Assembly (NCBI RefSeq): GCF_000802205.1
Contig: NZ_CP012850.1
Location: 496,001 to 560,000, forward strand
Source of the DNA: Candidatus Nitrosocosmicus oleophilus
GTDB taxonomy: Archaea > Thermoproteota > Nitrososphaeria > Nitrososphaerales > Nitrososphaeraceae
Direction of reading: 5' to 3'
Length of the DNA: 64,000 nucleotides
Made by a program: the position numbers and the translations under genes
Part shown: piece by piece, positions 1 to 18,846 of the stretch
How the letters are laid out: every line of letters starts with the position of its first letter
Position numbering within the stretch: position 1 is the first letter of the stretch
Notes under the pieces: generated by a model
Seen by the model: only the letters and a program-made list of their open reading frames with translations
What the model was told of the DNA's origin: nothing
Database searches by the model: none

Positions 1-3000
1 CACCTGCTTTTTAACTACATAATTCCGCTGATTGTAACTGAAGCGAGTCACCGTCCCACGTGCATCTATCATCGCTATCTTACGGCCACTCTTATCGTAA
101 ACTGTTTGAGAGATTATTTGACCCAGAGGATCAACTATGCTGGTCGGCTTGCCATCTAGGTTATATTCATAATATATAACATTACCTCGTCCATCTGTGA
201 GGCTTCTCGTTTCACCGTGCCGTGTCTTTGAAGTAGTTATTTGCCGTCCTTCTGGAGTGGTTACCATCACGATACGATTTGTCTCGTCATATGTATACAC
301 AGTCTCGTTTCTAAGTGCATCAATCAGGCGATACTCGCGACCGAAAGCATCAAAATCAGTGCGCATTACATGTTGCAACGGATCTTTTATCTCAACGCTT
401 CTACCATTATCAGGATAAAACTTTGTAGTTACCCAACCCAATGCGTCAATCGATCGAATAATACGACCGAAAGCATCAAATTCCAACCGTGTATTTGAGT
501 TAATTCCCCCCACATCTTCGGTCTGCGATACTAAGTGTCCGACCAGATCGTAATCGAACTGGCTGGTAGTGCTCTGACCTTTCTGAGTAGATTGCACTCT
601 GGCAACCAACTCTTGAAAGTCGTTATAGATATTCTCTGTAAATCCTTCTTCTGAATCTTCCTGTTTTACTAGCTGGCCACGACGATCATATTCATACCGG
701 GTGATCTGATCAGCACTTGGGTTGGCAATCAAAGACAACATATCAAATAAGGATTGATCGGCCAATCCACCACCCTCACCACTTCCGCTATCTCTATAGA
801 GTAACTGATTCATGTTAATATTGTTCAGAAGTGCAGCATAGCGATGAACCTGTTCTGGTTGCCCGAAACTGTTGTAAAAAGTTTCGGACACTTCACCGGC
901 AAGACTACTGTCCTCCTCATATCCAACGACATTAACCGAATGGGTTTGTCGATTCTCACGGTCATAATAATAAATAGTCAAGTTGCCATTAGCATCAATG
1001 CTTCGCACCAATTGACCTAGCGTGTCGTATGCGTAGGAAGTACCATATTCACGTATTGCCTGCTCTATTCTCTCCGGAGTTGGGTTCGCCCCTAGCCAGG
1101 CATCGCCTTCGCCTCCCAAACTCGCCGTTACCTCGTTATAGGCGTTATAAAAAGTACGCTGTGCGCGTTCTTCGTCAGTACCTCTTGCTGTGATCACACG
1201 GATAAGGCGACCAACCGGGTCGTACTCATTGTGTGTCAGCGTTGATCCGTCATGCCCTGTGACCTCTAGAATCCTCCCAAAGTTATCATATTGTACAAAG
1301 GATACAAGATGAGGTATCCCTGCCCTGTTTTTTAAGGAATCTAAAGAGTCCGTTTCTGTAACAACTACCGGCGACATGTATCGCAGTGTTCGCTGGGTAT
1401 TAAGCGCGTCATTGTATATCGTCTCAGTCAGAAATTGCTGCTCGTCTACGGATCCAGTTACACGGGCCTGTTTATCATAATATAGGTAACTTCGCAGCCC
1501 GCTTGTATCGACAGGTAGCCATGCCGAGACTTGATTGCTCCCCACAGACTGATTGGGGGTCACCATGGCCTGCTTGTGAATTCGTAATGACAGAGTTCTT
1601 TCAGTCGATTTACCGTTGGGATTAATGACCTGAAAACGAATGCTGTAGAATCCTTCATAGCTACAAGCTCCAGTAATCGACCGAGTAATGGCATCAAACG
1701 ATAGCCCAGGCGGCAATCCTCCAAGTACTCGATAGATGAGCATTGATCCAATCGCTTCTGGGATTACATGGTTCACAGGTACATTTGCTACCAAGTCCAA
1801 CGGAGATAGTGTAATCCATTCAGGCCCTGCTCCGCCTCCTGTTTCTCCCCCATCTACTGTCTGCTCGTCTGATGAAGGGACTGGAAGGAAATTGAAAGGT
1901 AAAGTAATATCAGAGGCTCCACCGCGGTCATCTTCGACACGCAGGGCTATGCTTTCATTAGTTACTGCTAAAGGAGGGTTTCCACGCAACGTACATTTAT
2001 CGGCGTCGAAATTCATCCAAGTGGGCAGATTACCAATCACGCTGAAGATAAGCCGGTTGCCATATGCACTATATGCAGCCATGCGACAACTAAAAGGTTG
2101 GCCAGCAACCAAGATTTGTTGAGTGGCACCTATCCAAACGGGCATAGAGTTAATTGTTGCTGCTGCTTCTGCCGCGGGACTCCGTTGGCTATATCGAACC
2201 GTTTCTATAAGTCGACCGCCCGCGTCATATTTGAATTCGGTTAAGAATCCAAGTGCATCAATTATTCCAACACGACGACCGTCTTTATCGTATAGGTATC
2301 GCGTCACGCGATTGCCAGTTTGTATCATAACCAAGCGGGAAAGATCATCATAGGAATTAATGGTGACAACCCCCAAGGAGTCAGTATAGACAGTTATTCG
2401 ACCTACCTCATCATATTCCATGGTTGTGCTGCGATCATTTGTAGTATCTACGATCACATCACTATCTGCTCCGCCTACTGTAAGAGTAGCCTTTGTCACG
2501 GTGTCTGTCGTGACGTCGTACCAGTCCGTGACATTTGCTGGGTTCTTATATAATGTCTGACGGAAGAGTAGTCCAGTCATATTGTACTCAAACCGTGTCA
2601 CTGCTCCGGTAGCGTCAACCTTGAACTCGAGATTACCTGCAGCATCATAAAATCGGTAGCGACGGCCTCCTTGTGAATCCTCAAGCATTTTAAGCCGGTC
2701 AGCATTGTCATACAAGTAACGCCTTTGTCGCGTACTGGTTCCGTCGGTTTGGCTAACCTCCGTTAGACGGCCGCGGATGTCATATTCGCGGGTTTCGATG
2801 AGGCCACTAGAATAGGCCACGATAACGCGCCGGTTAACATCGTCGTAGGTGACGGTTTGAGAACCATGAGGACTATTATTAGTTAGAACTCGGCCAATTC
2901 CATCAAATGTATTACTGTTTATGCTGGTGCGGATATTGCGAGAGGGACCCCGTACACTGATTGTATTCTTTAATTGGGCATAAGCATCGTATTTAAATTC

Positions 3001-4686
3001 AGTTACACTAGTCTGTTCGTCAAGCACGCCAGAACCAGACGAGCTGATCGTCGCGTAACTCGTTTGCTGACTCACATTGCCGCGTGAATCATATTTATAT
3101 TCAGTGAGCTGGACCTGTGTAACATCTGGGAGTCCCATCACCCAGTTTTTCATATTAACCTCCGTCAATTGATGAGCCGAATCAAGATTGGTTACGTCAT
3201 AGGTATTACCTATGTATAATAATACCTGAGTTAGCAATCCAAAGCCATTGTGCTGACCACCGTAACGATTTTCAGTCACGCGTCCTTCTGGGCTTACTAC
3301 AAAACGCAATCGCGCATTTGAGTCATATACATAACGCGTGGTGATAGGATTGATCCCCTGTTGAGATCCGTTGCCATCTGGCTCAGTAATTAGGTAGCGA
3401 GTCTCGTTCACGAGTTGGTTTAGAGGGTTGAATATGCGTCTAATAGTATTGCCGGCCGCATCACGCTCAAATTCGTTGTTACCCGCGCTATCATACTCGA
3501 AGCTAGTTTTATTATTTTGAGGGTCAGTTATAGATTGAATGTTCCCTGCATCGTCATATTCGAATTTCTTCGACATGTAAGAGCCTACCACAGGGGGCGT
3601 TAGAACCTCGGTTAGGCGGCCATTGGACCCATCGTGGCGATACGCCCAGACCTGACCATCGCCATCTGTGATCGTCGTTATATTCGTTGGAACCTCGTAG
3701 GCGATTGTCCATTGTGAGCTTGGTAGTCCACCCTGATCGGTGACGGCACTCACTCTGCCCAAGTGGTCATAGTTAAAAATCACTCCCACGCCGTCGCTCT
3801 GAGTTACACTTACAATGCGGTTACTCGTAGTATCATAGACATAGCTTGTGACAAAACCATCACCAACAGGGATACTACCGCTGTTAGGTGTTAGATATCT
3901 CGTGACTGTTGACAAGCGGCCAAGGTTATCGTAGTTGTAATCCACTAGTCTCAGTGGGTCGCTCAGTGTTGTGGATGGGTTGCCGCTAGAATCTTCAGTA
4001 AGTGGAATTGCTTCTAGGTGCTGCAGGCGGGTATGGCCACTGAATGAGTTATATGTAAGTTTGATCGCCTGTCGGCTTATAGCATCTTCAATAAACGTCA
4101 ACAACCCATTGCTGTCATAGGTTATGTTGATACTATTATTGCTAATATCAGTTTGGCGGACTAGACGTCCAATCATATCTGGGCCGTTTGAATTCGAATA
4201 CCTCTCCGTAGTGCGCAGAGAGCCATCTGTCCATACCCACTCAGTCATGGTATCGTCATAAGTCAGTTGGTCGTGTGCTCCACGGTCGTCGGTTGTTAAA
4301 AATACGTTATGAATGGAATTCCAAGAATAAGTTGTCTCGTGGCCGTCTCCATTGATTAATAAAATGGTCGCCTCTGGTTCGGGATGCAGAGGTGACCCAG
4401 GACCCTGAAATCTCAGAGTCTTTTCATAATTCCAACGCCAAACATCTTCATTACCAGCACTAGGTGTACCTAGAGAATTATATGTGTGTAATGCAAGCAG
4501 ATTCATTCCCCGACCCGCTAGTTGAATATCATGAGATTGGAGTACCAAGTTGCCATTAACAGCGTTGACGTTGGCTTGGATGCTTCCCCCACCGACGCTC
4601 GATTGTCCAAGTACTCCTGGAGTACCTATAGTATTTAGTGATGTATTCAGTAATCCTAAGCCGTTGCCTGCAACAATAGCTACCAT
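1..4686 (-). CDS. Giant RHS/YD-repeat protein, C-terminus outside window
   Basis: I read this frame codon by codon: it has no stop from the ATG at 4686 to base 1, so at least 1562 residues are present and the end is missing. The first in-frame stop upstream is at 4693-4695. The N-terminus has the entry motif of RHS proteins (GNLVLQSHDIQLAGRGMNL near residue 45). Dozens of YD repeats follow (pattern YDxxGR, for example YDEVGRI, YDKDGRR and YDAAGN). Around residues 860-1040 the repeats are interrupted by two Ig/cadherin-like He_PIG-type modules (LPTWMNFDA and LPPGLSFDA motifs), after which YD repeats resume. No signal peptide is obvious. In the family, the repeats build a shell enclosing a C-terminal toxin or adhesion domain; that end lies outside, so function is open. 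Base composition is clearly more GC-rich than neighbouring genes, which suggests transfer. The RHS identity is firm. Confidence 0.93.
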   Translation of the reverse strand, partial: MVAIVAGNGLGLLNTSLNTIGTPGVLGQSSVGGGSIQANVNAVNGNLVLQSHDIQLAGRGMNLLALHTYNSLGTPSAGNEDVWRWNYEKTLRFQGPGSPLHPEPEATILLINGDGHETTYSWNSIHNVFLTTDDRGAHDQLTYDDTMTEWVWTDGSLRTTERYSNSNGPDMIGRLVRQTDISNNSINITYDSNGLLTFIEDAISRQAIKLTYNSFSGHTRLQHLEAIPLTEDSSGNPSTTLSDPLRLVDYNYDNLGRLSTVTRYLTPNSGSIPVGDGFVTSYVYDTTSNRIVSVTQSDGVGVIFNYDHLGRVSAVTDQGGLPSSQWTIAYEVPTNITTITDGDGQVWAYRHDGSNGRLTEVLTPPVVGSYMSKKFEYDDAGNIQSITDPQNNKTSFEYDSAGNNEFERDAAGNTIRRIFNPLNQLVNETRYLITEPDGNGSQQGINPITTRYVYDSNARLRFVVSPEGRVTENRYGGQHNGFGLLTQVLLYIGNTYDVTNLDSAHQLTEVNMKNWVMGLPDVTQVQLTEYKYDSRGNVSQQTSYATISSSGSGVLDEQTSVTEFKYDAYAQLKNTISVRGPSRNIRTSINSNTFDGIGRVLTNNSPHGSQTVTYDDVNRRVIVAYSSGLIETREYDIRGRLTEVSQTDGTSTRQRRYLYDNADRLKMLEDSQGGRRYRFYDAAGNLEFKVDATGAVTRFEYNMTGLLFRQTLYKNPANVTDWYDVTTDTVTKATLTVGGADSDVIVDTTNDRSTTMEYDEVGRITVYTDSLGVVTINSYDDLSRLVMIQTGNRVTRYLYDKDGRRVGIIDALGFLTEFKYDAGGRLIETVRYSQRSPAAEAAATINSMPVWIGATQQILVAGQPFSCRMAAYSAYGNRLIFSVIGNLPTWMNFDADKCTLRGNPPLAVTNESIALRVEDDRGGASDITLPFNFLPVPSSDEQTVDGGETGGGAGPEWITLSPLDLVANVPVNHVIPEAIGSMLIYRVLGGLPPGLSFDAITRSITGACSYEGFYSIRFQVINPNGKSTERTLSLRIHKQAMVTPNQSVGSNQVSAWLPVDTSGLRSYLYYDKQARVTGSVDEQQFLTETIYNDALNTQRTLRYMSPVVVTETDSLDSLKNRAGIPHLVSFVQYDNFGRILEVTGHDGSTLTHNEYDPVGRLIRVITARGTDEERAQRTFYNAYNEVTASLGGEGDAWLGANPTPERIEQAIREYGTSYAYDTLGQLVRSIDANGNLTIYYYDRENRQTHSVNVVGYEEDSSLAGEVSETFYNSFGQPEQVHRYAALLNNINMNQLLYRDSGSGEGGGLADQSLFDMLSLIANPSADQITRYEYDRRGQLVKQEDSEEGFTENIYNDFQELVARVQSTQKGQSTTSQFDYDLVGHLVSQTEDVGGINSNTRLEFDAFGRIIRSIDALGWVTTKFYPDNGRSVEIKDPLQHVMRTDFDAFGREYRLIDALRNETVYTYDETNRIVMVTTPEGRQITTSKTRHGETRSLTDGRGNVIYYEYNLDGKPTSIVDPLGQIISQTVYDKSGRKIAMIDARGTVTRFSYNQRNYVVKKQV

Positions 4687-4697
4687 CACGTCTCACA

Positions 4698-4958
4698 TTA
4701 TGTTTTTGATGCTATAACGCCAAACCTGTTTACATCATTAGAAACCCCTTGTCCGATTCTAAAATTATTATGATAATAATTAAATAAATATGCCAATAAT
4801 ACCCAATGTTGTAATATACAGAGACCCTTGATTTTCACCACTGATGTAAAGTATAGAATCCCTAAAAAGATAGAATTGCTGAAAAATGGGCCTGAAATAC
4901 AAAGTGTTCTTAGAATACTTATTCGGCGTTCAAATTGATCATGCGTTGTCTTTGACAT
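4698..4958 (-). CDS. Small hydrophobic protein upstream of RHS gene, hypothetical
   Basis: This is an 86-residue open frame that ends 12 bases before the RHS start and is read in a different frame. The N-terminus is charged (residues 1-18), followed by two hydrophobic stretches (about 24-40 and 45-60) that could be membrane segments. Its position would fit a co-transcribed helper of the RHS protein, but I recognise no immunity, chaperone or secretion family in it. Its base composition resembles the AT-rich background rather than the RHS gene. It may be a chance frame. Confidence 0.35.
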   Translation of the reverse strand: MSKTTHDQFERRISILRTLCISGPFFSNSIFLGILYFTSVVKIKGLCILQHWVLLAYLFNYYHNNFRIGQGVSNDVNRFGVIASKT

Positions 4959-5135
4959 TATTTACAATAATGAATCACAAAAAATATATCTTATTTTTCC
5001 ATTAATTCTTAGAACTACATATTCTAATACTTTGAGAATTAATACTTTGTAACCAACTAGCATAAATTTACTGTCTAGATCGGTCGGAAATTCCTTCCAA
5101 GAAAAATGTCATACCACTTGTATTCATGAAGCCGT

Positions 5136-6455
5136 CTAAGATTTAGATATAACCGACAAACTTTGTAATTCATTCCAATACTTTTGGAATAGAATATCTT
5201 GAACTAATACATGAGTGTTGTTATGGGATATAGATAAGTGAATTCTGTTCATCACCGGATAAGTTATCTTGAGTATTTGTTTTGCATCACAAATCATCAA
5301 AAGCCCATTAATTTTTCCCAGTTTATTGGAATATCCTATTGTTATCCTCTTTCCTTTGAGGGAGGAATTTATCCTATTTATCTGTCGAACTATTTGAGAA
5401 TTGTATCCATCCATCAAAATCTTGATTACTACTCCCTTTTTAGAAAGATTCAGTAACTGGAGCCAAAAGCTGTTGTCTTCCCTAAAATATTTCAATATAT
5501 TGACAGAACTTAAAATTAGTAACTCCCTTTTTGATTGTTCAATGAAAGTGGCTATGTCTACTTTTGTATCTTTAATATGGCGAAATGACTTGTGAAAGAT
5601 TGCTGTCTTCCGATATTCTATCTCTGAATTTCTGTCCTTGAGAGGGATTGATATTTCCAAGATCTCTCTGTCCATTATTATGGTAATGCTTTTAGTTTGT
5701 GTTGATTTATTTAGATGATGTATTTCTATTTGAGGACATCCAATTAATATCTCTGAATCGTTAGCTTCGATCGGACTAGTTGTTTTAATTAGCATTCGAA
5801 TCAAAATCCCATTATTAGTTTTTTCTTTTACCACATCTAGCATCCCAAGTTCTTTATATAATTTTAGAGACTCTAGGGTCGAAAAGATGAGTTGTATTTC
5901 TGTAGTTGAAGATGACAGGAACTTCGTAATTATGGAAGCTACTTCATCAGAATCACGGATGGTTTCTGTGAACTCACTTTTCAAACTATCTTCAATTTCT
6001 TTTATTCTCTGCAATCCAGGTATGGATTTGTTCCATAAAGTATCAAAGAAACATTGTTGCTGTTGAACAAAAGCACTGATTGAATTTGATAGGAGTAATG
6101 GAGGTGCTGAGGATTTCCCAGATTCTGCTGTTGCTCTGTAATAAAGTCCATCCACAATTCCAAAATTTCCCTTAATCGCATCCATATGGCGTAGATCAGA
6201 TATTTCCCTGAGTTTCTTGCAATATTCGATGTTCTCTTTTGTGATCTCTGAAATGAATCTTAGCTGTATGCCTCTGGCTTTGGCATCTACATATACCCTG
6301 GTTATAGGATGATTGGGAATTACAAAGGTTGAAGGTGCATCAAAATCCATACATGCACATATGGTTTTTTTGGCTAATGAAATCAGTTTAACTGTGTCAT
6401 CGATAATATTTTGATCACCGTAGATAACCTTTGTTTTCTCTTCAATGTCCATCAT
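5136..6455 (-). CDS. Sensor-type protein with PLD-like sensing domains, no kinase
   Basis: A 439-residue soluble protein. The N-terminal half has the sensing module that, from memory, precedes histidine kinases in Nitrososphaeria: residues forming a PLD-like fold (RGIQLRFISEITKENIEYC), an RHMDAIKGNFGI motif and the closing FFDTLWNKSIPGLQRIKEIE segment that normally leads into the kinase. Instead of His-kinase and ATPase boxes, a second domain follows (about 180-439) with strands such as GVVIKILMDGYNSQ, similar to the sensing domain itself. It may be a stand-alone ligand or redox sensor, or a decoy partner. It is a paralogue of the gene at 6723-7703, with which it shares near-identical DNA (5394-5658). 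No dedicated neighbour suggests a partner. Family assignment is by recall; the coding call is firm. Confidence 0.8.
   Translation of the reverse strand: MMDIEEKTKVIYGDQNIIDDTVKLISLAKKTICACMDFDAPSTFVIPNHPITRVYVDAKARGIQLRFISEITKENIEYCKKLREISDLRHMDAIKGNFGIVDGLYYRATAESGKSSAPPLLLSNSISAFVQQQQCFFDTLWNKSIPGLQRIKEIEDSLKSEFTETIRDSDEVASIITKFLSSSTTEIQLIFSTLESLKLYKELGMLDVVKEKTNNGILIRMLIKTTSPIEANDSEILIGCPQIEIHHLNKSTQTKSITIIMDREILEISIPLKDRNSEIEYRKTAIFHKSFRHIKDTKVDIATFIEQSKRELLILSSVNILKYFREDNSFWLQLLNLSKKGVVIKILMDGYNSQIVRQINRINSSLKGKRITIGYSNKLGKINGLLMICDAKQILKITYPVMNRIHLSISHNNTHVLVQDILFQKYWNELQSLSVISKS
5394..5658. repeat. Near-identical block shared with 6981-7245 (copy 1)
   Basis: This 265-base segment matches 6981-7245 at a constant offset of 1587 bases. 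It is identical except for a short patch near 5606-5616. Flanking parts of the two genes are homologous but diverged, with another nearly identical stretch at about 5165-5230. The pattern points to recent gene conversion or recombination within a tandem duplication. Confidence 0.9.
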
Positions 6456-6722
6456 ATTCTATTACCGTCGTTTAATGCAAATAATGTTAATGCAATCTTC
6501 AATCGCAAGATAGATTTTCTTCAGATGACTTAATAACTTATGGATGACTGGTTATTAGATGACAAAATTGGGTATGTGGATTTGGTAAATGGTTAGGAAT
6601 GAAAAAATCTCAACAGCGGCATTTATATAATTTTACCATTGTGTAGTATATGACTGCTTGCTAAATCTGTTACATATTTATTCCGAAAAAATATAATAGA
6701 AACTCATACCCGCAAAGCTATT

Positions 6723-7703
6723 TTAGACTTGAGTATGCTCCGCCAAAATTAGTAATTCATTCCAATACTTTTGGAATAGAATATCTTGAACTAATACACG
6801 AGTTTTGTTATGGGATATAGATAAATCAATTCGATTCAACGCTAGACGTTTTATCTCGAGTATTTGTTTGTTATCACAAATCATCAAAAGTTCGTCTATT
6901 TTTCCCAGTTTATTGGAATATTTTATCATCACACCATCGTCTTTCATTGAGGAATTTATTCTGTATACTTGACGAATGACTTGAGAATTGTATCCATCCA
7001 TCAAAATCTTGATTACTACTCCCTTTTTAGAAAGATTCAGTAACTGGAGCCAAAAGCTGTTGTCTTCCCTAAAATATTTCAATATATTGACAGAACTTAA
7101 AATTAGTAACTCCCTTTTTGATTGTTCAATGAAAGTGGCTATGTCTACTTTTGTATCTTTAATATGGCGAAATGACTTGTGAAAGATTGCTTTCTGTAAA
7201 TACTCTATCTCTGAATTTCTGTCCTTGAGAGGGATTGATATTTCCCAGAGATTGTCAAATAGCAATTTCTGTTTTTCTACCAAAGATTTAAGATTGCTAA
7301 AAAGGGCCTGTGATGGTCTTTGTTCGTCCTTATGAAACATACAAATCATATATGTTCGATTGTCAGTAATTCCAAAATTACCTCTCAAATCATTAAGGTG
7401 TCTTATCTCGTATTTTCTGATTGAATTAACGAGTGCAACATTCTCAGGAGTAGTTTCTATTATTGTTCGTATTTTGATATTCCTTTCATCTATTAGTTTC
7501 TCCATTAGTATAAAACCATCCTTCAGAAAGGTGGAAATATAATCAAACATCTTGCCATCTAAAACTGAATCAACACTTAGAGTGGTCATATTAACAGAAT
7601 CTATGATTAACCTTTCCATTTGATGGATGTCGTATACCACATCTGTTATTTCAGGAAACCTGTGGTGAGTTTCTAATAGTTTATTGAATGTAACATCTTC
7701 CAA
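6723..7703 (-). CDS. Shortened paralogue of the kinase-less sensor protein
   Basis: A 326-residue protein related to the 5136-6455 product. The N-terminal part keeps the sensing-domain hallmarks (RHLDDLRGNFGITD, then LLFDNLWEISIP), but about 110 residues of the longer paralogue are missing. At the LWEISIP junction it passes straight into the C-terminal domain (PLKDRNSEIEY onward). This junction coincides with the start of the near-identical DNA block, so the gene looks like a recombination product joining an N-terminal half to a copied C-terminal half. No kinase, HTH or membrane segment is visible. It probably acts as a cytoplasmic sensor or partner, but no target can be named. Confidence 0.78.
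   Translation of the reverse strand: MEDVTFNKLLETHHRFPEITDVVYDIHQMERLIIDSVNMTTLSVDSVLDGKMFDYISTFLKDGFILMEKLIDERNIKIRTIIETTPENVALVNSIRKYEIRHLNDLRGNFGITDNRTYMICMFHKDEQRPSQALFSNLKSLVEKQKLLFDNLWEISIPLKDRNSEIEYLQKAIFHKSFRHIKDTKVDIATFIEQSKRELLILSSVNILKYFREDNSFWLQLLNLSKKGVVIKILMDGYNSQVIRQVYRINSSMKDDGVMIKYSNKLGKIDELLMICDNKQILEIKRLALNRIDLSISHNKTRVLVQDILFQKYWNELLILAEHTQV
6981..7245. repeat. Near-identical block shared with 5394-5658 (copy 2)
   Basis: Second copy of the 265-base block. It ends exactly where the encoded protein switches from the N-terminal sensing module to the C-terminal domain. Confidence 0.9.
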
Positions 7704-8202
7704 TTATTTCTACAATATATAGTGGCCAGATTAAAAATGTCATGGTAATTTCATCACAAAGGGTGAAAAAGTCAAAACAAATTTCAAACTTTAGTCGACA
7801 GCTTCTATTTTTTTGAAATATACTTAAATCATCATGACCGCAAGGTGAAAGTACAAATGTCGGTGACCAGAGGTTTATGAAACAAATTTGACATGAAATT
7901 TGATTCAATTTTGTTTGTTATTAAATGACGAGTTGAATTAATCGAATCTATATGATAACAGGAACAGAGGTTTCCGTTGTGCGATCACTGCTAAAAAAGG
8001 ATTCAATGCCTATACTGCTTACAAATAATTAAACCTTGTGAATTTGATCGATTTAACTTTAACGCAAGGAGACTGTAAGAATGGAAGGGAATTGGGGGCT
8101 TAATAACTTTCTTGTATTCAAAGGTTTAAACTTTGGATAGTAGAGATGTGATTCACCTATTTTTCTTGATGCCGCACATCGGATTCAAATTCTTGAGTAA
8201 AA
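7704..8202. other. Intergenic, nothing recognised
   Basis: About 500 bases between two minus-strand genes. A short frame at 7681-7908 overlaps the sensor gene start and does not look like a protein. No RNA gene, repeat or strong hairpin was seen. Confidence 0.5.
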
Positions 8203-9330
8203 TTATCGAATCAACTTTTTTTGAATATACTCCAAAGAATCCTTTGCTTGTACTTTTGAATCCATGTGATCTATCAGAGATCTATTCCTAATGTGCTTCC
8301 TAATTTCAAGGGCCTCATAACCATGTCTCTCTGCGTTATAAATTTTGATCATTTTCTTTGTATTATCAGAAAAGTCATCAAGGTATTTTTTATCTATTGA
8401 GGTATTTTTTTTGTCAGTTGTTATTCTAAATTCATCCATTGATGTCTTATGATATCCATAATCGATCCCATCAAATATATGAAAATCCTCAATATCCTTT
8501 TCCTCTTTCAGTTTCAGTTGAAGATCTGGAGGCAATGGTCTTTGAACATGAGATGATCCAAATGAATCAAATCCCATCACATAAGCCATTATGTCTTTAG
8601 CAGGGGCTACATCCCTTTTTTTCTGAATCCTCGTAAAAGGCACATTCAAAGCATGAATAAAAGTATCAATTTCATACTTTTCATTAATCGATTTTGATAG
8701 TCTTTTTAAATCATTCATCAATGAATAAAAATCTAGAGGGTTTTTTCCGTGACAATCCAACATAAAATTGGTAATCTTGTTATCATAATAGAATCGACAA
8801 AGTTCTTTAAATTCAACGGGAGCCAAAATAGGAAAAAATCCAAAAAAAACTGGGTCATCTCTAATATTTCTCACAGAATCATAGAATCTCCTTAAATACA
8901 GCTTGAGTTGATCTAAATCCAGCCCGCTTACTATAGGAGGTATAACAATCTCATTATAAGGAGTACATAATTCATTAGCTAAATAATCTATATTTTCGGA
9001 ATCGATTTTATCTGCTATATCAAAATTTACAATTAAGAAATTAATATCATTTTGACCATGTTTCCTAACCAAATTATTAATGCTTTGAGAGAATCTACTA
9101 TTTTCTTTCGTATCATTCTTAATTTTATGAAATTTTGAATTCGATAAATTTATGTGAATTTCATTGATTCCTCTTAACTTATTTTCTTTAATAATTCTCG
9201 ATTCGGACCTAGGATCTTTCAAGTGAAGAGCTCTAATAGGAGTACTGATTTGTTTTTGACCAAGTTGTATAGTCTGAGTTTTGCAAGAAAAGTTCTCGTC
9301 GTGTATCACTTTCTCTATTGAAAAATCCAT
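8203..9330 (-). CDS. Hypothetical protein, possibly TGT-like (tRNA-guanine transglycosylase fold)
   Basis: A 375-residue soluble protein I cannot place firmly. The N-terminus (about residues 1-40, with IQLGQKQISTPIRALHLKD) recalls the opening strand pair of archaeal and bacterial tRNA-guanine transglycosylases, where a small hairpin is followed by an ETP motif. Later segments (NFLIVNFDIAD, FFGFFPILAPVEF, NFMLDCHGKNP, YVMGFDSFGSSHV) look like alternating strands of a TIM barrel. The catalytic Asp pair and zinc-binding Cys/His set of true TGT enzymes could not be identified. It starts 47 bases from the divergent antitoxin-like gene at 9378, so the two probably share a promoter region. TGT-like proteins also occur in DNA-modification (DpdA) loci, but no other dpd gene is seen here. 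Confidence 0.6.
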   Translation of the reverse strand: MDFSIEKVIHDENFSCKTQTIQLGQKQISTPIRALHLKDPRSESRIIKENKLRGINEIHINLSNSKFHKIKNDTKENSRFSQSINNLVRKHGQNDINFLIVNFDIADKIDSENIDYLANELCTPYNEIVIPPIVSGLDLDQLKLYLRRFYDSVRNIRDDPVFFGFFPILAPVEFKELCRFYYDNKITNFMLDCHGKNPLDFYSLMNDLKRLSKSINEKYEIDTFIHALNVPFTRIQKKRDVAPAKDIMAYVMGFDSFGSSHVQRPLPPDLQLKLKEEKDIEDFHIFDGIDYGYHKTSMDEFRITTDKKNTSIDKKYLDDFSDNTKKMIKIYNAERHGYEALEIRKHIRNRSLIDHMDSKVQAKDSLEYIQKKLIR

Positions 9331-9377
9331 GAAATCATAAACAAAAATTATATTATTTACCTTTTCTATCTTTCATA

Positions 9378-9989
9378 ATGCCTGTGGATGATCCATTTTC
9401 TAAGTATTTTAGTACGAGTGACGATTCTTCGGATTTTAACTATTTATTATTGTTATTGTATTCTCCCACAATTGGCGGCCAAACGAATGTACCGATTAAA
9501 GGAAAAACACATTTGCATAAGGCTTTCTTTTTGATGTCGAAAGTCTATGATGATCTTGATCCATCACGTGAACATTTGTTCGGGCCAGAGAGCCCTGCTG
9601 CTGAATTGGCATATGTACAATGTAATAATTCGAATTTAGTCACAGAAGATCCAAGAAATGGAATAAGACTAAGTGAAAAGGGAATACCTATGGCTTCAAA
9701 ACTATGGATTAAAACAGATGAACCAAAGAGGAACTTCATCAAAAAAGTTAAAAATACGATTAGTAATATGACGGTGAATGAGCTCATAGACTATGTATAT
9801 TCCGCCTATCCTGAATCTACTAGTAATTCAATTATTTTGACAAAACACGAACAAACTCGATTCAACTCTGCGGTAAGTTTACATAAGAAAAAACTAATTT
9901 CACTGGAAAGAGCCGCGGAGATTGCAGGAAAAACATTGGAAAGTTTTCTTGAAGAAGTGGATAGAAGAAACATTGTTTTGTTCGAATAG
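9378..9989 (+). CDS. Antitoxin candidate: Panacea-like domain fused to UPF0175-like tail
   Basis: A 203-residue protein with two parts. Residues about 20-110 (GKTHLHKAFFLMSK, FGPESPAAELAYV, IRLSEKGIPMASKLW) resemble the Panacea/DUF4065 fold found in antitoxins, with the typical order of a KL-type helix, a GP motif and a terminal winged element. Residues about 155-203 (RFNSAVSLHKKKLISLERAAEIAG, then FLEEVDRRNI) match the UPF0175 pattern, in which a helix-turn-helix alternates Ala and Glu before a final short strand. UPF0175 proteins usually pair with PIN toxins. The next gene, 9 bases downstream on the same strand, is a PIN-domain protein, so the pair forms a classic toxin-antitoxin operon. 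Fusion of the two antitoxin modules is unusual. Assignments rest on motif recall. Confidence 0.72.
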   Translation: MPVDDPFSKYFSTSDDSSDFNYLLLLLYSPTIGGQTNVPIKGKTHLHKAFFLMSKVYDDLDPSREHLFGPESPAAELAYVQCNNSNLVTEDPRNGIRLSEKGIPMASKLWIKTDEPKRNFIKKVKNTISNMTVNELIDYVYSAYPESTSNSIILTKHEQTRFNSAVSLHKKKLISLERAAEIAGKTLESFLEEVDRRNIVLFE

Positions 9990-9998
9990 GATTCAAAT

Positions 9999-10532
9999 TT
10001 GAAATATATATTACCAGACGCAAATACTCTAATTAGTTTAAGACAGATCAAAGAAATCGATCTCCTGAACAAGATTTGTATTAAAAGTAAGCTAGATATT
10101 ATTCTTTCAGAGAAAGTAATGAACGAGGTGGATAAAGGGCGATTGGAACGAGAAATAGGAATGTCAAAATATGATCATGTAAAAAGTTATCCTACAGATC
10201 CATCCAGATACGAATCTATGAGGAGAAAAATAATTGAGAATTTTTTACTAAGTTTAGGCAAAGGAGAAATGGACATATTCGCAATAATAGATGCCTGCGA
10301 AGATCGCACCTTTTCCAATTATCTGATCATAACTGATGATCAAGAGGCTTCTCAAGTTAGCACATACCTGAAAATGAAATATTGCAATATTTGTGATTTT
10401 CTTAAATTAGCCCTAAGTAATGAGGTAATCATTAAAGAGAAATATTTGGATATAATAAGCAAGCTTAAATCCAATGGACGAATTAGTTCGGTGCGTCATG
10501 ATTACTGTAAAGAGTTGCTCAAAAAGGAATGA
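9999..10532 (+). CDS. PIN-domain ribonuclease, probable toxin
   Basis: A 177-residue protein with the ordered acidic residues of a PIN nuclease: DANTLISL at residues 7-14 (first Asp), a Glu in the EKVMNEVDKG region near 44, GKGEMD near 87-92 and ITDD near 112-115. PIN toxins cleave RNA with Mg2+ held by these residues. The TTG start lies 9 bases after the stop of the antitoxin-like gene, so the two are probably co-transcribed and translationally coupled. The fold resembles the DUF3368-type PIN proteins known to pair with UPF0175. A housekeeping RNA-processing PIN protein is less likely given the partner. Confidence 0.8.
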   Translation: MKYILPDANTLISLRQIKEIDLLNKICIKSKLDIILSEKVMNEVDKGRLEREIGMSKYDHVKSYPTDPSRYESMRRKIIENFLLSLGKGEMDIFAIIDACEDRTFSNYLIITDDQEASQVSTYLKMKYCNICDFLKLALSNEVIIKEKYLDIISKLKSNGRISSVRHDYCKELLKKE

Positions 10533-10741
10533 AAAAACAGCGTGTCTTGCACAAACCTGTGTTTGATATCCATCTAATTTTTTCTTCTAGGCTATTGAAT
10601 TACAGAAAGTGATTTGAAATCCTTATTCTTTCATAGTAGGTGTTAAACACTGTTAATGGCCTATAGCTCTTTATCAGAAATTGGACTTTTTCCTGGAAAA
10701 TATCATACAATCAAGCTTAATAACAAAATTTTTAGACTGCT

Positions 10742-11698
10742 ATGAGGAAATACTTTATGATTGAAAGGAAAGATGTCGAAAATCTTGGGAGTGCCTATAT
10801 TGACATTGACGGGATTAAGATAATAGAAGATACTGAAGGCATGTATGAGATATCAATTCCTTATCACTTTCCCATAGGAAAAGAGGAATTTATAAGAAAG
10901 GATTCCGCATTAGTAAAACCTTTTAAACAAATTCTATTAGAAGGTAAACCTTTGGAAAAAATTTCCTATTTTTTTTATGGAGAAGGTGACGAATATTGGT
11001 TAATTGGTTCTTTTGCATATACTAAAGCAAGAAGAATTCTTTTCTTTCCCGGCTTGAACTTATCCCGAGTAGTACATTCTCCAGATAATAAAGAGGTATT
11101 AGATGAAGTACATAACATCGATCATCTAACTTTAGAGAATAACTTAGAGAGCTGGCATGTAACTCTTAAGGAAAAAAATGATAGAGGTATCAAATATTCT
11201 AGAATGAAACCCGCAAAATTGAGTGAAAATGTGTTCCTATGGTTTGTCATGGCCATACCAAGTGCTAAGACACTAGAACCGATGCCAAAATCTCAAGAAT
11301 TTATAATAAAAGCAAACAAGAAAAAAGCTAATAGTATAGAAGAACTCACAAGGAGACTAGGCAACTTCTTCCAATCAAGACATCAATCTCTTTTTCCGGT
11401 CATAAAATGGAAACATGAATCCCCTTTACCTTGTTTCATTAATTTTGAAATTTTTATGTTGTTAGGTAACACGAGGGAAACCGATCTGCCTGACAAACTC
11501 TTCTTTGCATTGCCGCCACTCACTAAACCAGAGAAGATGGATGATGGTATTAGATCCAGAGCAGGTTATCCTTCTCCCTTAACTGATTCTATTTCTGTTT
11601 GCATTCGTGTTTCAAAAATCAAAGGATCATTAAATCAAGATGCAGGTTATGATGGAGGTTATTATTCTGGAGAGGAGATCATTAAATATTTTGAATAG
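10742..11698 (+). CDS. Conserved-looking hypothetical protein
   Basis: A 318-residue soluble protein with no signal peptide or membrane segment and no family I recognise. It has a mixed alpha/beta look, with a glycine-rich YFFYGEGDEYWLIGSF segment near residue 80 and a Tyr/Gly-rich tail (GYDGGYYSGEE). It stands alone, about 210 bases after the PIN gene on the same strand. It could belong to the accessory region between the toxin-antitoxin pair and the replication module. The coding call rests on length and codon pattern only. Confidence 0.6.
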   Translation: MRKYFMIERKDVENLGSAYIDIDGIKIIEDTEGMYEISIPYHFPIGKEEFIRKDSALVKPFKQILLEGKPLEKISYFFYGEGDEYWLIGSFAYTKARRILFFPGLNLSRVVHSPDNKEVLDEVHNIDHLTLENNLESWHVTLKEKNDRGIKYSRMKPAKLSENVFLWFVMAIPSAKTLEPMPKSQEFIIKANKKKANSIEELTRRLGNFFQSRHQSLFPVIKWKHESPLPCFINFEIFMLLGNTRETDLPDKLFFALPPLTKPEKMDDGIRSRAGYPSPLTDSISVCIRVSKIKGSLNQDAGYDGGYYSGEEIIKYFE

Positions 11699-11894
11699 GC
11701 ACGGCTCATTTTATTATATCATCTAGTTTTACATTTAGATCTATCTGAGACTGCCAACTGCGATAGAATTTAGGATTTTGAAGAGGTAAACTATTCTCTT
11801 CATACTGAGCTTTTTCTATTTTTGAATGGTCATTCCCTGTCCAATACCTTAGTATTCCATCTAGCAATCTACATATTTTACACGTAATCTATTT

Positions 11895-12416
11895 TTACAA
11901 GTTCCAATCCTTTAGAACTGAATTTACAAACTCTTCTCCTAACTCTCTTTTATAATCATCAATTTCTAAAATCTCTGTGTTGTCAATAAATTCTTTGACA
12001 ACTTGCTCATCCTCTATTCTTCCATTTTCTTCATAAAAAGGGCAATCTGGAACACAATGTTCTCCGTTACAGTAATTTGATTTTGCTCGGTCTTCCCAAT
12101 AAGCTAGTTTCTCCATTTCTATATATGATGGATGAAAATAGTACATTTCCTTTCTTTGATAATAACGACTTTCCGGAGCATAATCATTCAACATATGTGA
12201 TAAATGGTATTCGAATTCCTCTGCTGTCTGCTCATACGCATCTAGATTTCCAAAAGTTGGATCTCCTCCATTGCGAATATATTTCTCCATTCGAATAACA
12301 TGATAGACGTCAAATCGTTTCAGTTTTTCTTTTTCTTCTGCATTTAAATTAATTTCCTCTATCTCCTTTGTATGGTCTTCTGCAATTTTTATTTTATTGG
12401 ACAAGTCATCAAGCAT
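11895..12416 (-). CDS. Hypothetical protein co-transcribed with HTH protein
   Basis: A hydrophilic, highly charged protein of about 173 residues. Near its C-terminal third it has a small Cys/His cluster (CNGEHCVPDC) that may bind zinc. I chose the ATG at 12416, which overlaps the last codons of the upstream HTH gene (stop 12409-12411) by 8 bases; an alternative TTG lies at 12437. This tight overlap indicates one transcript and probable translational coupling. No known family was recognised. It probably belongs to the integrated element. Confidence 0.6.
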   Translation of the reverse strand: MLDDLSNKIKIAEDHTKEIEEINLNAEEKEKLKRFDVYHVIRMEKYIRNGGDPTFGNLDAYEQTAEEFEYHLSHMLNDYAPESRYYQRKEMYYFHPSYIEMEKLAYWEDRAKSNYCNGEHCVPDCPFYEENGRIEDEQVVKEFIDNTEILEIDDYKRELGEEFVNSVLKDWNL

Positions 12417-12789
12417 TTTCTTTTTTAAAATTCTCAATCTTTTCCAACCTCTCCTCTAATTCTTTCAAGTATACGAGACTTGGGCCTTCCGCTACTAGTT
12501 TAAACAATGATTCATTACATTCTTTGGCCAACTTTAATGAGTTTAGCTTATGAAGGTAGTTCATAGATGCATTATCACTCTCATAAATACTCCAACATTC
12601 TTTCAGTATACTCTTGATTCCTTCTATTGAAGTAGAATATAGAAATGGTAATGATTGTTGAACTAAATATTTCAAATTGTTACTAGATTCCTTTGAAAGA
12701 TAATTGATATCTCTACTTACCGTGCTTTGTGTAAGATTAAGTGCTCCTGCAATCTGGTATCCCTTTAGACCCTTAGTCAAAAGTATCAT
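12409..12789 (-). CDS. Helix-turn-helix DNA-binding protein of integrated element
   Basis: A 126-residue protein whose N-terminal HTH is clear: GLKGYQIAGALNLTQSTVSRD, a Trp-repressor/response-regulator type HTH. It is followed by a helical region ending in a coiled coil (YLKELEERLEKIENFKKE). Nitrososphaeria carry many such proteins on integrated plasmids, usually starting with an ERREKIMILL-like helix. Here the codons for ERREKI lie in frame directly upstream of the annotated ATG. The frame stays open to about 12863 without an ATG, GTG or TTG; a CTG sits at 12849. The true start is therefore uncertain: either a rare start codon is used or the N-terminus has been damaged. Confidence 0.75.
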   Translation of the reverse strand: MILLTKGLKGYQIAGALNLTQSTVSRDINYLSKESSNNLKYLVQQSLPFLYSTSIEGIKSILKECWSIYESDNASMNYLHKLNSLKLAKECNESLFKLVAEGPSLVYLKELEERLEKIENFKKENA

Positions 12790-12863
12790 AATCTTCTCTC
12801 TTCTCTCTGCTATTGTCTTGTTATCCGATCGATGCTTTGACTTTGACAGTTGTATTGCACTAA

Positions 12864-13807
12864 TTGCATATAATCATCCTCAGCTAAAAGGTTTATTGCA
12901 GAAAATTGACAATTACAAGCTGCTATCCTATCAATACGATGATATCGTTTATATAAAATAGTCGGCTGATTTGCCATTCGTAACCATCAATTAAGAGGTA
13001 TCCTGTATCGTTGTTGAACTTTTTCACTTCGATAGTCAGATCAGAATATTGAATATTGTTAACCCTCAAAGGTGAATCGTTAAATGCAATGAATTTTTTA
13101 TAATCTGGTTGAGTGTCGATGTACTATACATCATATAGCCCTTCAATTCTCTCAATGCTTTCTATTGTACTATTTGGATGAACTAGAACACCAAGTCAAA
13201 GTCAATCTAGTCTTACTGATTTTATAAAATAGATTTGCTTGGGCAATCCCTATTCCTTTTACGTCTATCTTGTACTTTATGTTTGAGTGATAAGTATTAG
13301 TACTAGTGAGGATTCTATTCTCGTTTAGCCCAGATTTTTGTTTCAATCAGATCCGATTGATGGCTATGAATTCCATCCAATTCCAATCGATATTCACTTA
13401 GGAATTATTAAAATTCCTACGAGAGATTCTTGACGTTGACTAGATTAACAATACCGAATCTATTATTGTTGGTACAGATAGAAAAGACATGTTAAATAGA
13501 ATACAAACAACATTTGCTAGAGAATTCCAGATACGGTAAACTCAAAGAGTCAGATATTTTACCTACGGATTACGCTACTAGACAAGCCTGGACCAGAATT
13601 AGAAACCATATTAAAAACTACCCTGTGGATAAAAATAGATTTTCACAGATGATTAAGAATTGACAACCAGCTTAACAAATACGCCTTACTATATGATTGA
13701 TTTATGACGGTTTGGCCGATCCTCTCTCTATCGTCAATAGCATCGTCAATCCATAGGGTTAAATTTTAGTCTTAATAGTGCTAATTTCGTTTCTTCGTGA
13801 GTGTTAT
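12864..13807. other. Intergenic of integrated element, few signals
   Basis: Long region without an intact gene. It holds one coding-like fragment (13496-13663) and copies of CGTCAAT near 13733 and 13744 that resemble half of the downstream repeats. No RNA gene was recognised. Confidence 0.4.
13496..13663 (+). pseudogene. Short coding-like fragment, possible decayed gene
   Basis: A frame of 55 codons with no start codon that follows a stop at 13493-13495. It encodes a basic, helical-looking stretch (DYATRQAWTRIRNHIKNY) that reads like real protein. The surrounding 12.8-14.0 kb region otherwise lacks genes. This could be the tail of a lost element gene. The family is not recognised. Confidence 0.3.
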
Positions 13808-13959
13808 TGGACGGTAGGACGGTGTTGACGGTATTTTTTTGTTATTCTTCCTTGTTAACAACGGTCACGATTGCAACTTCCAAATGGAATTGAATCCTCC
13901 ACTAAGAAGACCATCTTAGTTTTCAGACTAAATATCTATAATCACCGTCAACACCGTCA
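13808..13959. repeat. GACGGT repeat cluster and 15-bp inverted repeat, candidate origin
   Basis: Three GACGGT motifs follow each other at 8-9-base spacing (13810-13832). The 15-base sequence GACGGTGTTGACGGT (13818-13832) returns as a perfect inverted copy at 13944-13958, with about 110 bases between. Related GGACGGT and GCCGGT motifs continue at 14046-14063 in the end of the primase gene. Short phased repeats beside a replication gene are typical of plasmid iterons, so this is a candidate replication origin or control site of the element. The repeats are seen directly; the role is inferred. Confidence 0.6.
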
Positions 13960-14025
13960 AACTGTCAAGAAAATTCGGACTTTAGAAAATGAGAAATTTC
14001 GTGCGTAAATCGACAAGATATCTAA

Positions 14026-16638
14026 CTAGTTTGGCAAAAACGTTTGGACGGTGTTTTTGCCGGTGTTGTTAGAAGGATTGTCAAATTTCTTGCAAATATG
14101 CTTCTTCATAAAGTGAATGTCGTCTATTAGATTACAATGTTCGCATTCAAAATTGTCTGAATTACCTATTCTATGAATATATGTTTTGATATCATAATTG
14201 ATAGATGTTTGGTCAGAAGGTAAAGATGTATTGTTACTATCTTGTCCCTTTCCTTTGATCTTAGTTAGTCGAATACACCGCTTCCCAAAAGAATCCTTGA
14301 TCCCGGTAGTAACTTCAATATTTTTCTTTAATAAAATAGGTGCAAGTTCATTTAACTGACGAGTTAATTGATTGGTTGCTTTTGGCCAATACTTACTTTT
14401 AAGAATCGCAGTATCCACTTGGCATATAATATCTGCTAATTCCTTGTTTAGTAGTGAAGGGGTTTTCATCCACGAGCTCTTTTCTTCCATCAATAATATT
14501 ACAGCCTCGGCAACTGGATGCAATTCAATTAGTTCTTCATTTTGCAAGTCAATATTTTCTCTATAAGCGTTGATAAACTCATAGTCTTTGTATCCTAGAC
14601 ATCGAGAAACTATTTCTCCATATTCAGCAAAGTCGGCCATCCGAGGCAACTCTTTTAGTAACTTTTCTTTTGGATGTTCCTTTAGATATTTCTGAAATTT
14701 CACCAACACGTCAAAGATGTAGCCCAAAACATAAGGTCTCATGCGTTCAAATTGCTCTTTTATTTCCTGTTCTTTTCGTCTTTTGTTCTCGGGGATTCTG
14801 TCGACCTTCAAGGTGAGAGACCTGTCAAGTAAATCTTGTCTTGTAGTTACTATATTAATTCCGTTGATGCCGATAGTTCGCTTATATTTGTAAATAAAAT
14901 CTTCATCTGTAGTATACAGTTCCCTCTTGGAGTTTCCAGATCCAGTGACGGCCCTGCATAGTATGTCAGATACAGGTGCTGATATGTAAGATACGTTGTC
15001 AAAATAGTTTACATAATGGTGTTCCAAAGACTGTATCAAATCTTCCTTATAGGGACTGAAAGAGAGGAGGTCGATACTACTTGGATCAATGATGTTTTTT
15101 AATAGTGTAAACGTAGTTGTTTTTGCGCCTCCTCCGTTACCACTAATTATAAGTATTGGTTTCTGTATATCTGGAATAAAGGCCGAGACAAGATAGACTG
15201 AAAATAACAAAAAATCCTTTTCATTTCGCAGATTGAATAATGTCAGAAATTCTCTGAAATATTTCTCATTATCCTTATCTTCTAAAGGATAAATCTGAGG
15301 AATAGAGTTTCTTTCGTATCTTTTGAACATTGGTGTTTCGTTATTCTTGATGATCTCCCATCCTTCAGAAGTTATCTTGATGATCTCCCAAAAAGGATTT
15401 GTAAGGTCATAATAGAACACATCATCTTTATTAGCAACTCGCAATTGTAACTCTGTATGTTCGGTGTTTTCATCAAATAATTTCTGGGCTACTATCAGAC
15501 TTATTAATCGTTCTAGTTTTTCATCAGGTATGCTCGTATTATTGATTTCAAAGAATTCCTTTCTCAATAATAATTTAAATCTTTTACTTTCAATAGGAAT
15601 ACATTCGATATGATCATTTATTTTTATCATTATATGTAATTTGTTTAATTGATCATAAAAAATTGAGATGTACCTTTCCTTAATTTTGTTCAGAAAGTAT
15701 GATTCATCTCTATTAACCTCTGGATCATTGGAATCACTTTTCTTATTTTTTGCTACAAAGTTTTTTGCACCTTTCCATTGTTTTTCAAATTCTTTCTTCT
15801 CTAGGGATGGTTCTAAATGCTCTAGATTATATTGCCAAGCTAAATCTTTTATTCTATCTTCAGAATAAATGGTTCTTAGTCTTTGAATCAAAGACTCCAT
15901 TACTCTAAGTAAAGCTTCGTGTCTATTGTTGCCTTCCTTGACCTTAAATCTCTCCTTAAAAAGATCTTCTATTGGAGTCAATCCATCATTGTTTCTCATG
16001 GAGGAACCAAACTTTTGATATATCTGTCTAATGCAATTTTCCAATATTTCTGAGTTTTCTTTGTTTATTACGGTTGGCTTTGCAGTTCCAAATATACGAT
16101 ATGGATATCCGTTCTTGTGGAGTGAAGGGGTACAAAACATGATACCGTGACTTCCCTCTGATTTAACTTCGATCGCAGGAATTTCTGAGGTACTATTTGA
16201 TCCCACAATTCCGCTTCTTTTTGATAATGGTTGCTGTGCTACAAAGTAAATGTGAATCTTATTAGGATCATCGGCGTGGCCCTCGATGATAGTTCTTTGT
16301 GCAAGTTTATCTATATTATCAACTTGACCAAAATGAGATAGAAATTCTTTAATTCCTGAGGCATTATCAATATCTATGCAAACAAGATATTTACCTTGAT
16401 ATGGGCCTCTATGAATCTTACCTGCGATAATAGCCATCCCATTATTAAAGGCACCTTTAATTTTCCATTCAACATGCAGTTCCTCGGAGACAGAATCAAT
16501 TTGATATTTGGACCATTCTACGTTGGTGATTTTATTTTTTGTGTTAGCAGGAATAGGATCTACTCCGATTTTATACCTCCAGAAATCAGCCCAGTCATTT
16601 GGATTAATGCGTGTATCATCAATGAGATTAGTTGTCAA
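14026..16638 (-). CDS. Primase-helicase replication protein of integrated element
   Basis: An 870-residue replication protein. The N-terminal part resembles the bifunctional primase-polymerase fold, with CIDIDN at residues 87-92 as the likely metal-binding Asp pair and IHIYF and EVKSEG segments further on. The middle to C-terminal part is a P4/D5-like superfamily 3 helicase: Walker A variant SGNGGGAKTT around residues 498-507, YFDNVSYI as Walker B-like segment, and a sensor region VTTRQDLLDRSLTL. The residue before the Walker A lysine is Ala instead of Gly, as I recall for related proteins of archaeal mobile elements. The extreme C-terminus has a C2H2-like finger (CEHC...H...C). It probably starts replication of the element from a nearby origin; the GACGGT repeats lie just downstream. 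Confidence 0.85.
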   Translation of the reverse strand: MTTNLIDDTRINPNDWADFWRYKIGVDPIPANTKNKITNVEWSKYQIDSVSEELHVEWKIKGAFNNGMAIIAGKIHRGPYQGKYLVCIDIDNASGIKEFLSHFGQVDNIDKLAQRTIIEGHADDPNKIHIYFVAQQPLSKRSGIVGSNSTSEIPAIEVKSEGSHGIMFCTPSLHKNGYPYRIFGTAKPTVINKENSEILENCIRQIYQKFGSSMRNNDGLTPIEDLFKERFKVKEGNNRHEALLRVMESLIQRLRTIYSEDRIKDLAWQYNLEHLEPSLEKKEFEKQWKGAKNFVAKNKKSDSNDPEVNRDESYFLNKIKERYISIFYDQLNKLHIMIKINDHIECIPIESKRFKLLLRKEFFEINNTSIPDEKLERLISLIVAQKLFDENTEHTELQLRVANKDDVFYYDLTNPFWEIIKITSEGWEIIKNNETPMFKRYERNSIPQIYPLEDKDNEKYFREFLTLFNLRNEKDFLLFSVYLVSAFIPDIQKPILIISGNGGGAKTTTFTLLKNIIDPSSIDLLSFSPYKEDLIQSLEHHYVNYFDNVSYISAPVSDILCRAVTGSGNSKRELYTTDEDFIYKYKRTIGINGINIVTTRQDLLDRSLTLKVDRIPENKRRKEQEIKEQFERMRPYVLGYIFDVLVKFQKYLKEHPKEKLLKELPRMADFAEYGEIVSRCLGYKDYEFINAYRENIDLQNEELIELHPVAEAVILLMEEKSSWMKTPSLLNKELADIICQVDTAILKSKYWPKATNQLTRQLNELAPILLKKNIEVTTGIKDSFGKRCIRLTKIKGKGQDSNNTSLPSDQTSINYDIKTYIHRIGNSDNFECEHCNLIDDIHFMKKHICKKFDNPSNNTGKNTVQTFLPN

Positions 16639-16743
16639 TTTTTAAATCTCTCACTCTTACAGTTGCAATCATCAATACGATATTTAGGAAATAGCCGACC
16701 TGTTTATTTGGGAGATAGCATTACGATACATGACTGCAATTAG

Positions 16744-17199
16744 CTAGCGAGAAGCCTCGCCTGTTATTGTAGTTCCTCCTTGCCTATTTACCAGAACAAC
16801 TACAACTTCGCCCTTGATTTCATAAACAGGATTATATTCCGAAATCTCCCAGTCTTCATTCTTTAAAACATCATGAATTTTATCTAAAGGCACTAATTTG
16901 ATATCTACTATTCTCCGGCTACTTCTGTCATATCTGCTTAATTCCCTTTCTAGAATAATCTTTTTAGAGGACCTTGTATTATGCGAGTTTGATACATTTG
17001 TCATTTGTTTTCTAAATACCGGAATAGTTCCGTTGTCATTGACTTTAACTGAATATTCATAACCATTGTATTCGATCTTACATCCATCCTCAGGCTTCAG
17101 AATTGATAGTAACTCTTGATCAGTTATCTCTTCATACCAACACCAGCATGCACCCTTAGATGATATTTTCCAAGGCGGATCATTGGCATTATTGCTCAT
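16744..17199 (-). CDS. Hypothetical protein upstream of primase-helicase
   Basis: A 151-residue soluble protein on the same strand as the primase-helicase, ending 105 bases before it. The N-terminus is Trp/Cys-rich (KGACWCWYEEITDQELL), and the C-terminal part alternates beta strands (YEIKGEVVVVLVNR). No known domain was recognised. Its position suggests a replication accessory or regulatory protein of the integrated element. Confidence 0.55.
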   Translation of the reverse strand: MSNNANDPPWKISSKGACWCWYEEITDQELLSILKPEDGCKIEYNGYEYSVKVNDNGTIPVFRKQMTNVSNSHNTRSSKKIILERELSRYDRSSRRIVDIKLVPLDKIHDVLKNEDWEISEYNPVYEIKGEVVVVLVNRQGGTTITGEASR

Positions 17200-18844: not shown

Positions 18845-18846
18845 AA

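What the first reader, a model, noticed from the sequence alone, without database searches (positions are those of the whole stretch)
1..4686. Giant RHS/YD-repeat gene with foreign base composition in a thaumarchaeon
An RHS protein of at least 1562 residues is open from 4686 to the edge, and its DNA is visibly richer in G+C than all neighbouring genes. RHS proteins are mainly bacterial toxin or adhesion shells; a complete archaeal one next to an integrated element would suggest transfer and a possible inter-microbial weapon.
Basis: partly seen in the sequence, partly recalled or inferred. Interest (0 to 1): 0.7.

Follow-up and report, generated by a model that had tools for sequence, protein, structure and literature searches.

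The report
Bacterial giant toxin-type gene in archaeon
A soil-type archaeon carries a very large (5,160-residue) intact gene taken from Proteobacteria, whose bacterial relatives are modular toxins used between microbes; the archaeal copy keeps the shell but has an unrecognised tip and no neighbouring immunity gene, so it may be a captured weapon or a repurposed one.

Summary
Left of the window the frame stays open: the gene is one uninterrupted 5,160-codon ORF (G000:485204-500686; window 1-4686 is its first 1,562 codons), 45.6% G+C against 32-34% outside, single copy, absent from the 14 other genomes of the genus. It belongs to a family of giant (about 3,700-8,600 residues) RHS proteins that I found otherwise only in Proteobacteria. 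Its closest relative, from Microvirga massiliensis, is 56% identical over the first 420 residues (tree support 100/99), so transfer from bacteria is well supported. The family layout is shared N-terminus, YD repeats, LysM domain, proline hinge, variable C-terminus; in three relatives the C-terminus is a recognised toxin. The archaeal protein keeps this layout, including a pre-toxin linker found in bacterial RNase-toxin proteins, but its last 205 residues match nothing. The canonical RHS core motif is absent, as in the relatives checked. All ten bacterial relatives checked have a small gene right after the toxin; the archaeon has none for 444 bp. The gene lies in a roughly 30-kb segment missing from a 94%-identical sister, with a recombinase beside tRNA-Lys. 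Best reading: a captured, selectively maintained polymorphic-toxin-type RHS protein of unknown payload and delivery route.

The parts
1..4686 (-). First 1,562 codons of the giant RHS gene; the CDS continues outside the window to a stop at G000:C1:485204 (L006:1204), 5,160 codons in all. ATG start at 4686 (an in-frame GTG at 4689 is one codon upstream).
   Evidence: start by alignment to bacterial relatives
3430..4686 (-). Family-specific N-terminal block (residues 1-419; MVAIVAGNGLGLLNTSLN...), 56% identical to Microvirga massiliensis, 30-42% to other Proteobacteria
4327..4572 (-). DUF6531 (residues 39-120), typical of RHS protein N-termini
   Evidence: E 6.4e-06
1921..2124 (-). Putative Ig domain He_PIG (residues 855-922) inserted between YD-repeat blocks; among 13 relatives compared, clearly shared with Microvirga (37%) only, with one weak match in Pseudoalteromonas
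18847..20139 (-). Tyrosine recombinase (XerA-like, weak match) ending 44 bp from tRNA-Lys; marks the integrated element in the same strain-specific segment as the RHS gene
20183..20275 (-). tRNA-Lys(ttt), probable integration site; no duplicated att copy of 14 bp or more found within G000:446001-560000 (only scattered 13-bp matches)
14026..16638 (-). Prim-Pol-type primase protein (870 aa) of the integrated element
   Evidence: E 9.7e-05
4687..19247 (.). Right part of the segment absent from sister genome G333 (left limit G000:484932, about 270 bp beyond the RHS stop; right limit where G333 contig C7 begins)

Best explanation
It is a horizontally acquired, intact, selectively maintained giant RHS protein of the polymorphic-toxin kind, from a proteobacterial family (N-terminal block, YD-repeat shell of about 4,000 residues, LysM, proline hinge, variable C-terminal effector). 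Most likely the YD repeats fold into a closed beta-cage that holds the C-terminal region, the protein reaches the outside by an unknown route, and the C-terminal tip acts on a neighbouring cell. The LysM domain either grips bacterial peptidoglycan or docks to a delivery machine. Shown: transfer, integrity, family layout, toxin tips in relatives, absence of an adjacent immunity gene. Inferred: cage, export, target and toxicity.
For: N-terminal tree: sister to Microvirga 100/99, nested in an all-proteobacterial set. Giant colinear relatives (5,026 aa Eleftheria, 4,897 aa B. ubonensis, 4,851 aa Microvirga). Tips of relatives: YwqJ-deaminase 9e-8, colicin/pyocin DNase 4e-28, Scabin-like 1e-17. Identity to Microvirga falls from 56-58% (1-840) to 31% (2000-4000) to nothing after about 4600, the polymorphic-toxin pattern. 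Residues 4831-4932 match a pre-toxin linker in two bacterial proteins (L087, L099); L099 ends in RNAse_A_bac. LysM: 22 of 23 family members by Pfam; the archaeal one models as LysM, pLDDT over 90 in the core, best PDB neighbours contractile-injection and phage baseplate LysM proteins. Shell part matches solved Rhs cages 7q97, 7pq5, 8h8a. Selection: 73% of four-fold sites at conserved residues differ from Microvirga, but only 30-32% of first and second codon positions; 1,936 single-base changes would create a stop and none is present.
Against: The tip (residues 4956-5160) has no relative in Pfam, NCBIfam, PADLOC, PHROGs, PDB, plasmids, phages, viral contigs or the genomes sampled. There is no adjacent immunity gene. 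No Rhs core/autocleavage motif of the DPxGL type was found by simple motif scan. No signal peptide-like N-terminus (hydropathy), and a secretion system was not searched for.
Confidence: 0.58

Rival explanations
1. The protein was captured and repurposed as a surface, adhesion or aggregation protein: the shell and LysM domain do the work and the C-terminal tip is no longer a toxin, so no immunity gene is kept.
For: No immunity gene and no recognisable toxin; a fresh in-frame tandem repeat expansion (four 66-bp units, 90-95% alike) in the linker; Ig-like insert retained.
Against: The tip and the pre-toxin linker remain in frame and complete to a stop codon; the linker is specifically a toxin-side module in bacteria. 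No signal peptide or membrane anchor seen at the N-terminus.
Confidence: 0.27
2. It is a selectively neutral passenger of the integrated element, not yet decayed.
For: It lies in a segment missing from the sister genome and absent from 14 other genus members; composition still foreign.
Against: Third codon positions have largely moved (GC3 0.41 against 0.74 in Microvirga) and four-fold sites are near saturation, yet 5,160 codons hold no stop. Part of that divergence may predate the transfer.
Confidence: 0.1
3. Bacterial contamination or misassembly.
For: Bacterial sequence in an archaeal genome.
Against: Embedded in a single 3.43-Mb contig with archaeal flanks on both sides; composition intermediate (45.6%), not that of the GC-rich Microvirga contig (60.5%); left flank colinear with sister G333 at about 94% identity up to 270 bp from the stop.
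Confidence: 0.02

Closest known systems
Giant RHS-LysM (DUF6531) proteins of Proteobacteria, e.g. Microvirga massiliensis NZ_LN811359.1, Eleftheria terrae WP_301261020, Burkholderia ubonensis WP_069240722
   Same: Same start motif, size class, YD-repeat body, LysM plus proline hinge, variable C-terminus
   Different: Archaeal host; unidentifiable tip; no adjacent immunity gene; C-terminal 560 residues not shared with the sister
T6SS/T7SS Rhs polymorphic toxins (Tse5, Tre23, TseI; PDB 8cp6, 7pq5)
   Same: YD-repeat shell homologous by sequence; C-terminal effector position
   Different: Three to four times longer, no PAAR domain found, no DPxGL-type core/autocleavage motif, LysM near the C-terminus
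CdiA-CT / RNAse_A_bac toxin proteins of Burkholderiales and relatives (L087, L099)
   Same: Pre-toxin linker at archaeal residues 4831-4932 (35% identity)
   Different: The archaeal protein lacks the RNase domain and the following CdiI-like gene
Archaeal weapons already reported: peptidoglycan hydrolases (PMC12352652), haloarchaeal contractile injection system (PMC11566945), rare archaeal polymorphic toxins (PMC3482391)
   Same: Bacterial-type armament in archaea, often acquired from bacteria
   Different: Those papers, as far as read here, do not describe a giant RHS-LysM protein in an archaeon of this group

Membership tests
Giant proteobacterial RHS-LysM family | Homologous N-terminal block starting M-V-A-I-V-x-G-x-G-L-G | tested here: met
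Giant proteobacterial RHS-LysM family | LysM domain followed by a proline hinge after the YD repeats | tested here: met
   22 of 23 members hit Pfam LysM; the archaeal one does not reach the 0.01 E-value limit but aligns and models as LysM
Polymorphic toxins | Conserved N-terminal part with C-termini that differ between close relatives | tested here: met
   Identity gradient and unrelated tips
Polymorphic toxins | C-terminal toxin domain | tested here: inconclusive
   Met in three relatives; archaeal tip unassigned; single-sequence AlphaFold model too poor to use (pLDDT 42)
Polymorphic toxins | Immunity gene directly downstream | tested here: not met
   10 of 10 bacterial relatives have an 89-196 aa ORF starting -56 to +26 nt from the stop; none in the archaeon within 444 nt
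Canonical Rhs | YDPxxGRF...DPxGL core motif before the toxin | tested here: not met
   Absent by regular-expression scan from the archaeal protein and from all 13 relatives compared, some of them partial
Canonical Rhs | Dedicated delivery system (T6SS, T7SS, contractile injection) | not tested
Canonical Rhs | YD repeats forming a beta-cage | tested here: inconclusive
   Sequence homology to solved cages only; the protein is too long for the folding tool

The most novel reading that the evidence does not exclude
An archaeon uses a captured bacterial giant RHS shell to deliver an effector of a new family to bacteria, without an immunity gene because the target does not exist in its own cell.
Probability: 0.25. 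Interest if true: 0.78.

Novelty: new member of a known kind. Interest (0 to 1): 0.52.

Why it matters
If active, it would be a trans-domain acquisition of a polymorphic toxin in what appears to be an ammonia-oxidising archaeon, and a way to ask how archaea fight bacteria. Even if repurposed, a 15.5-kb bacterial gene kept intact while its codons drift towards host composition is a clear case of selected gene capture. The missing immunity gene makes a simple prediction: the tip should be harmless to the producer.

Tried and rejected
Searches for relatives of the tip in plasmids, phages, viral contigs, 300 genomes of the archaeal order, about 400 Pseudomonadota and 297 genomes of the Microvirga order gave only chance matches; the hits inspected (L108, L109, L113, L116) lie in unrelated genes or on the wrong frame. 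A guess from memory that the tip resembles a PD-(D/E)XK-type nuclease could not be tested and is not claimed. Structure of the tip: too low confidence. First genome-contig scan with the archaeal protein alone found nothing; the small alignment worked. RHS loci of other archaea of the class show only ordinary YD-repeat similarity to the N-terminal block, none aligning over its start. No att duplication found.

Full report
What is there. The window lies at 496001-560000 of a single-contig genome of 3,430,706 bases. That ATG rather than the GTG one codon upstream is the start, because bacterial relatives begin at the same residue. GC is 45.6% over the gene and drops to about 32% at both ends. GC by codon position is 0.54/0.42/0.41; 66 neighbouring host ORFs average 0.42/0.34/0.28 (third-position s.d. 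0.037), and the Microvirga relative has 0.59/0.50/0.74.

Distribution. Only one RHS gene is present in this genome; none of the 14 other genomes of its genus has a match to its N-terminal 402 residues. RHS repeats occur in 16 of 400 sampled genomes of the class, but none of those loci matches this family's N-terminal start. The family scan of bacterial and archaeal species genomes returned 32 loci, all Proteobacteria, the best being Microvirga massiliensis at 56% identity over 419 residues, then a Moraxellaceae MAG and Pseudomonas at 41-42%. The maximum-likelihood tree places the archaeal sequence with Microvirga (100/99), inside a seven-member clade (99/92) with Pseudomonas and Moraxellaceae. 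Its letter make-up is flagged as unusual and its branch is long (0.64 against 0.16), but pairwise identity alone gives the same neighbour over residues 1-4000. The direct donor is not identified.

Anatomy. Residues 1-419 form the family N-terminus, with DUF6531 at 39-120. YD repeats continue to about residue 4200, interrupted by an Ig-like He_PIG domain (855-922) that among the relatives compared is clearly shared with Microvirga only. A LysM domain lies at 4307-4360, followed by a PPPPP hinge; 22 of 23 family members score as LysM, and the archaeal one, below the Pfam limit on its own, models with pLDDT above 90 in the core and finds LysM proteins of contractile-injection and phage baseplates as its nearest solved folds (Foldseek E-values are weak, 0.02 and up, probabilities near 1). 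Then come a hydrophobic stretch near 4400-4420, a 22-residue tandem repeat in four near-identical copies, a helical linker, a pre-toxin region 4831-4932 shared with two bacterial proteins, one of which ends in an RNase A-like CdiA toxin domain by Pfam, and a unique tip of about 205 residues.

Function by family. Close and distant relatives carry different C-termini. Three are recognised toxins: YwqJ-like deaminase in Microvirga, colicin/pyocin-type DNase in Sphingomonas, Scabin-like ADP-ribosyltransferase in Pseudomonas uvaldensis; six other tips were not assigned. All ten bacterial relatives examined have a same-strand ORF of 89-196 residues starting between 56 nt before and 26 nt after the toxin stop, the usual place of an immunity gene; the archaeon has no ORF of 60 codons or more there for 444 nt, in AT-rich DNA. 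The adjacent small genes in bacteria were not themselves tested as immunity genes.

Is it alive? Compared with Microvirga over the first 1,017 aligned codons, 73% of four-fold sites at conserved residues differ, close to saturation, but only 32% and 30% of first and second positions. The gene offers 1,936 single-base routes to a stop and has taken none. Selection has therefore acted on the protein along this path, although the part of it spent in an unsampled bacterial donor cannot be separated.

Setting. In sister genome G333 the left flank is colinear at about 94% identity up to G000:484932, 270 bp from the RHS stop, and then continues into different DNA. Similarity resumes at about window 19247, at the end of a G333 contig, beside a tyrosine recombinase (18847-20139) and tRNA-Lys. 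The RHS gene thus lies in a segment of about 30 kb absent from the sister that also holds a Prim-Pol protein. Whether the RHS gene travelled on that element or sits next to it is open; no att repeat of 14 bp or more was found, and G333 is an 84%-complete draft.

Comparison with what is known. Polymorphic toxins are common in bacteria and reported in few archaea, probably from bacteria (PMC3482391, read). Rhs shells enclose and release a C-terminal toxin by aspartyl autocleavage (PMC8636562). The DPxGL-type core motif was not found in the archaeal protein or in the relatives compared, so release, if any, must differ. Archaea that attack bacteria with peptidoglycan hydrolases are shown in PMC12352652. 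A 2019 review of archaeal polymorphic toxins (Makarova et al., cited there) was not held, so I cannot say that this gene is unlisted.

Verdict. Transfer of an intact giant RHS protein of the polymorphic-toxin kind: about 0.95. Active effector against other cells: about 0.55. New member of a known kind, with two features worth following: an unassigned tip and no immunity gene.

Noticed in passing
window 5136-6455(-) and 6723-7703(-): Two adjacent PLD-like paralogues share a 3' half at 81-83% identity (recent duplication or conversion); the genome has at least 23 matches to this family, and every genus member searched has several.
   Followed up: partly
window 9378-9989(+) and 9999-10532(+): UPF0175-like protein followed 10 bp later by a 177-aa protein that looks PIN-like by eye: probable toxin-antitoxin pair inside the strain-specific segment.
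   Followed up: no
window 14026-20275: Integrated element: Prim-Pol protein (870 aa), regulator-like 357-aa protein, XerA-like tyrosine recombinase ending 44 bp from tRNA-Lys.
   Followed up: partly
L006:2520-2781: 66-bp tandem repeat, near-identical units (90-95%) inside the RHS coding region, encoding LSDEEVLSLSEQNPILIHGTVP: recent in-frame expansion.
   Followed up: partly
L135:601-1995: Sister genome G333 carries a different 464-aa gene next to the same left junction, with no counterpart found in G000: the junction looks like a variable site.
   Followed up: partly
window 4698-4958(-): 86-codon ORF with a hydrophobic stretch ending 11 bp before the RHS start; may be chance or a small partner gene.
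   Followed up: no
G323:C143 (L023): RHS matches in a 400-contig genome of the same family on short frames; could be a decayed copy or contamination.
   Followed up: no
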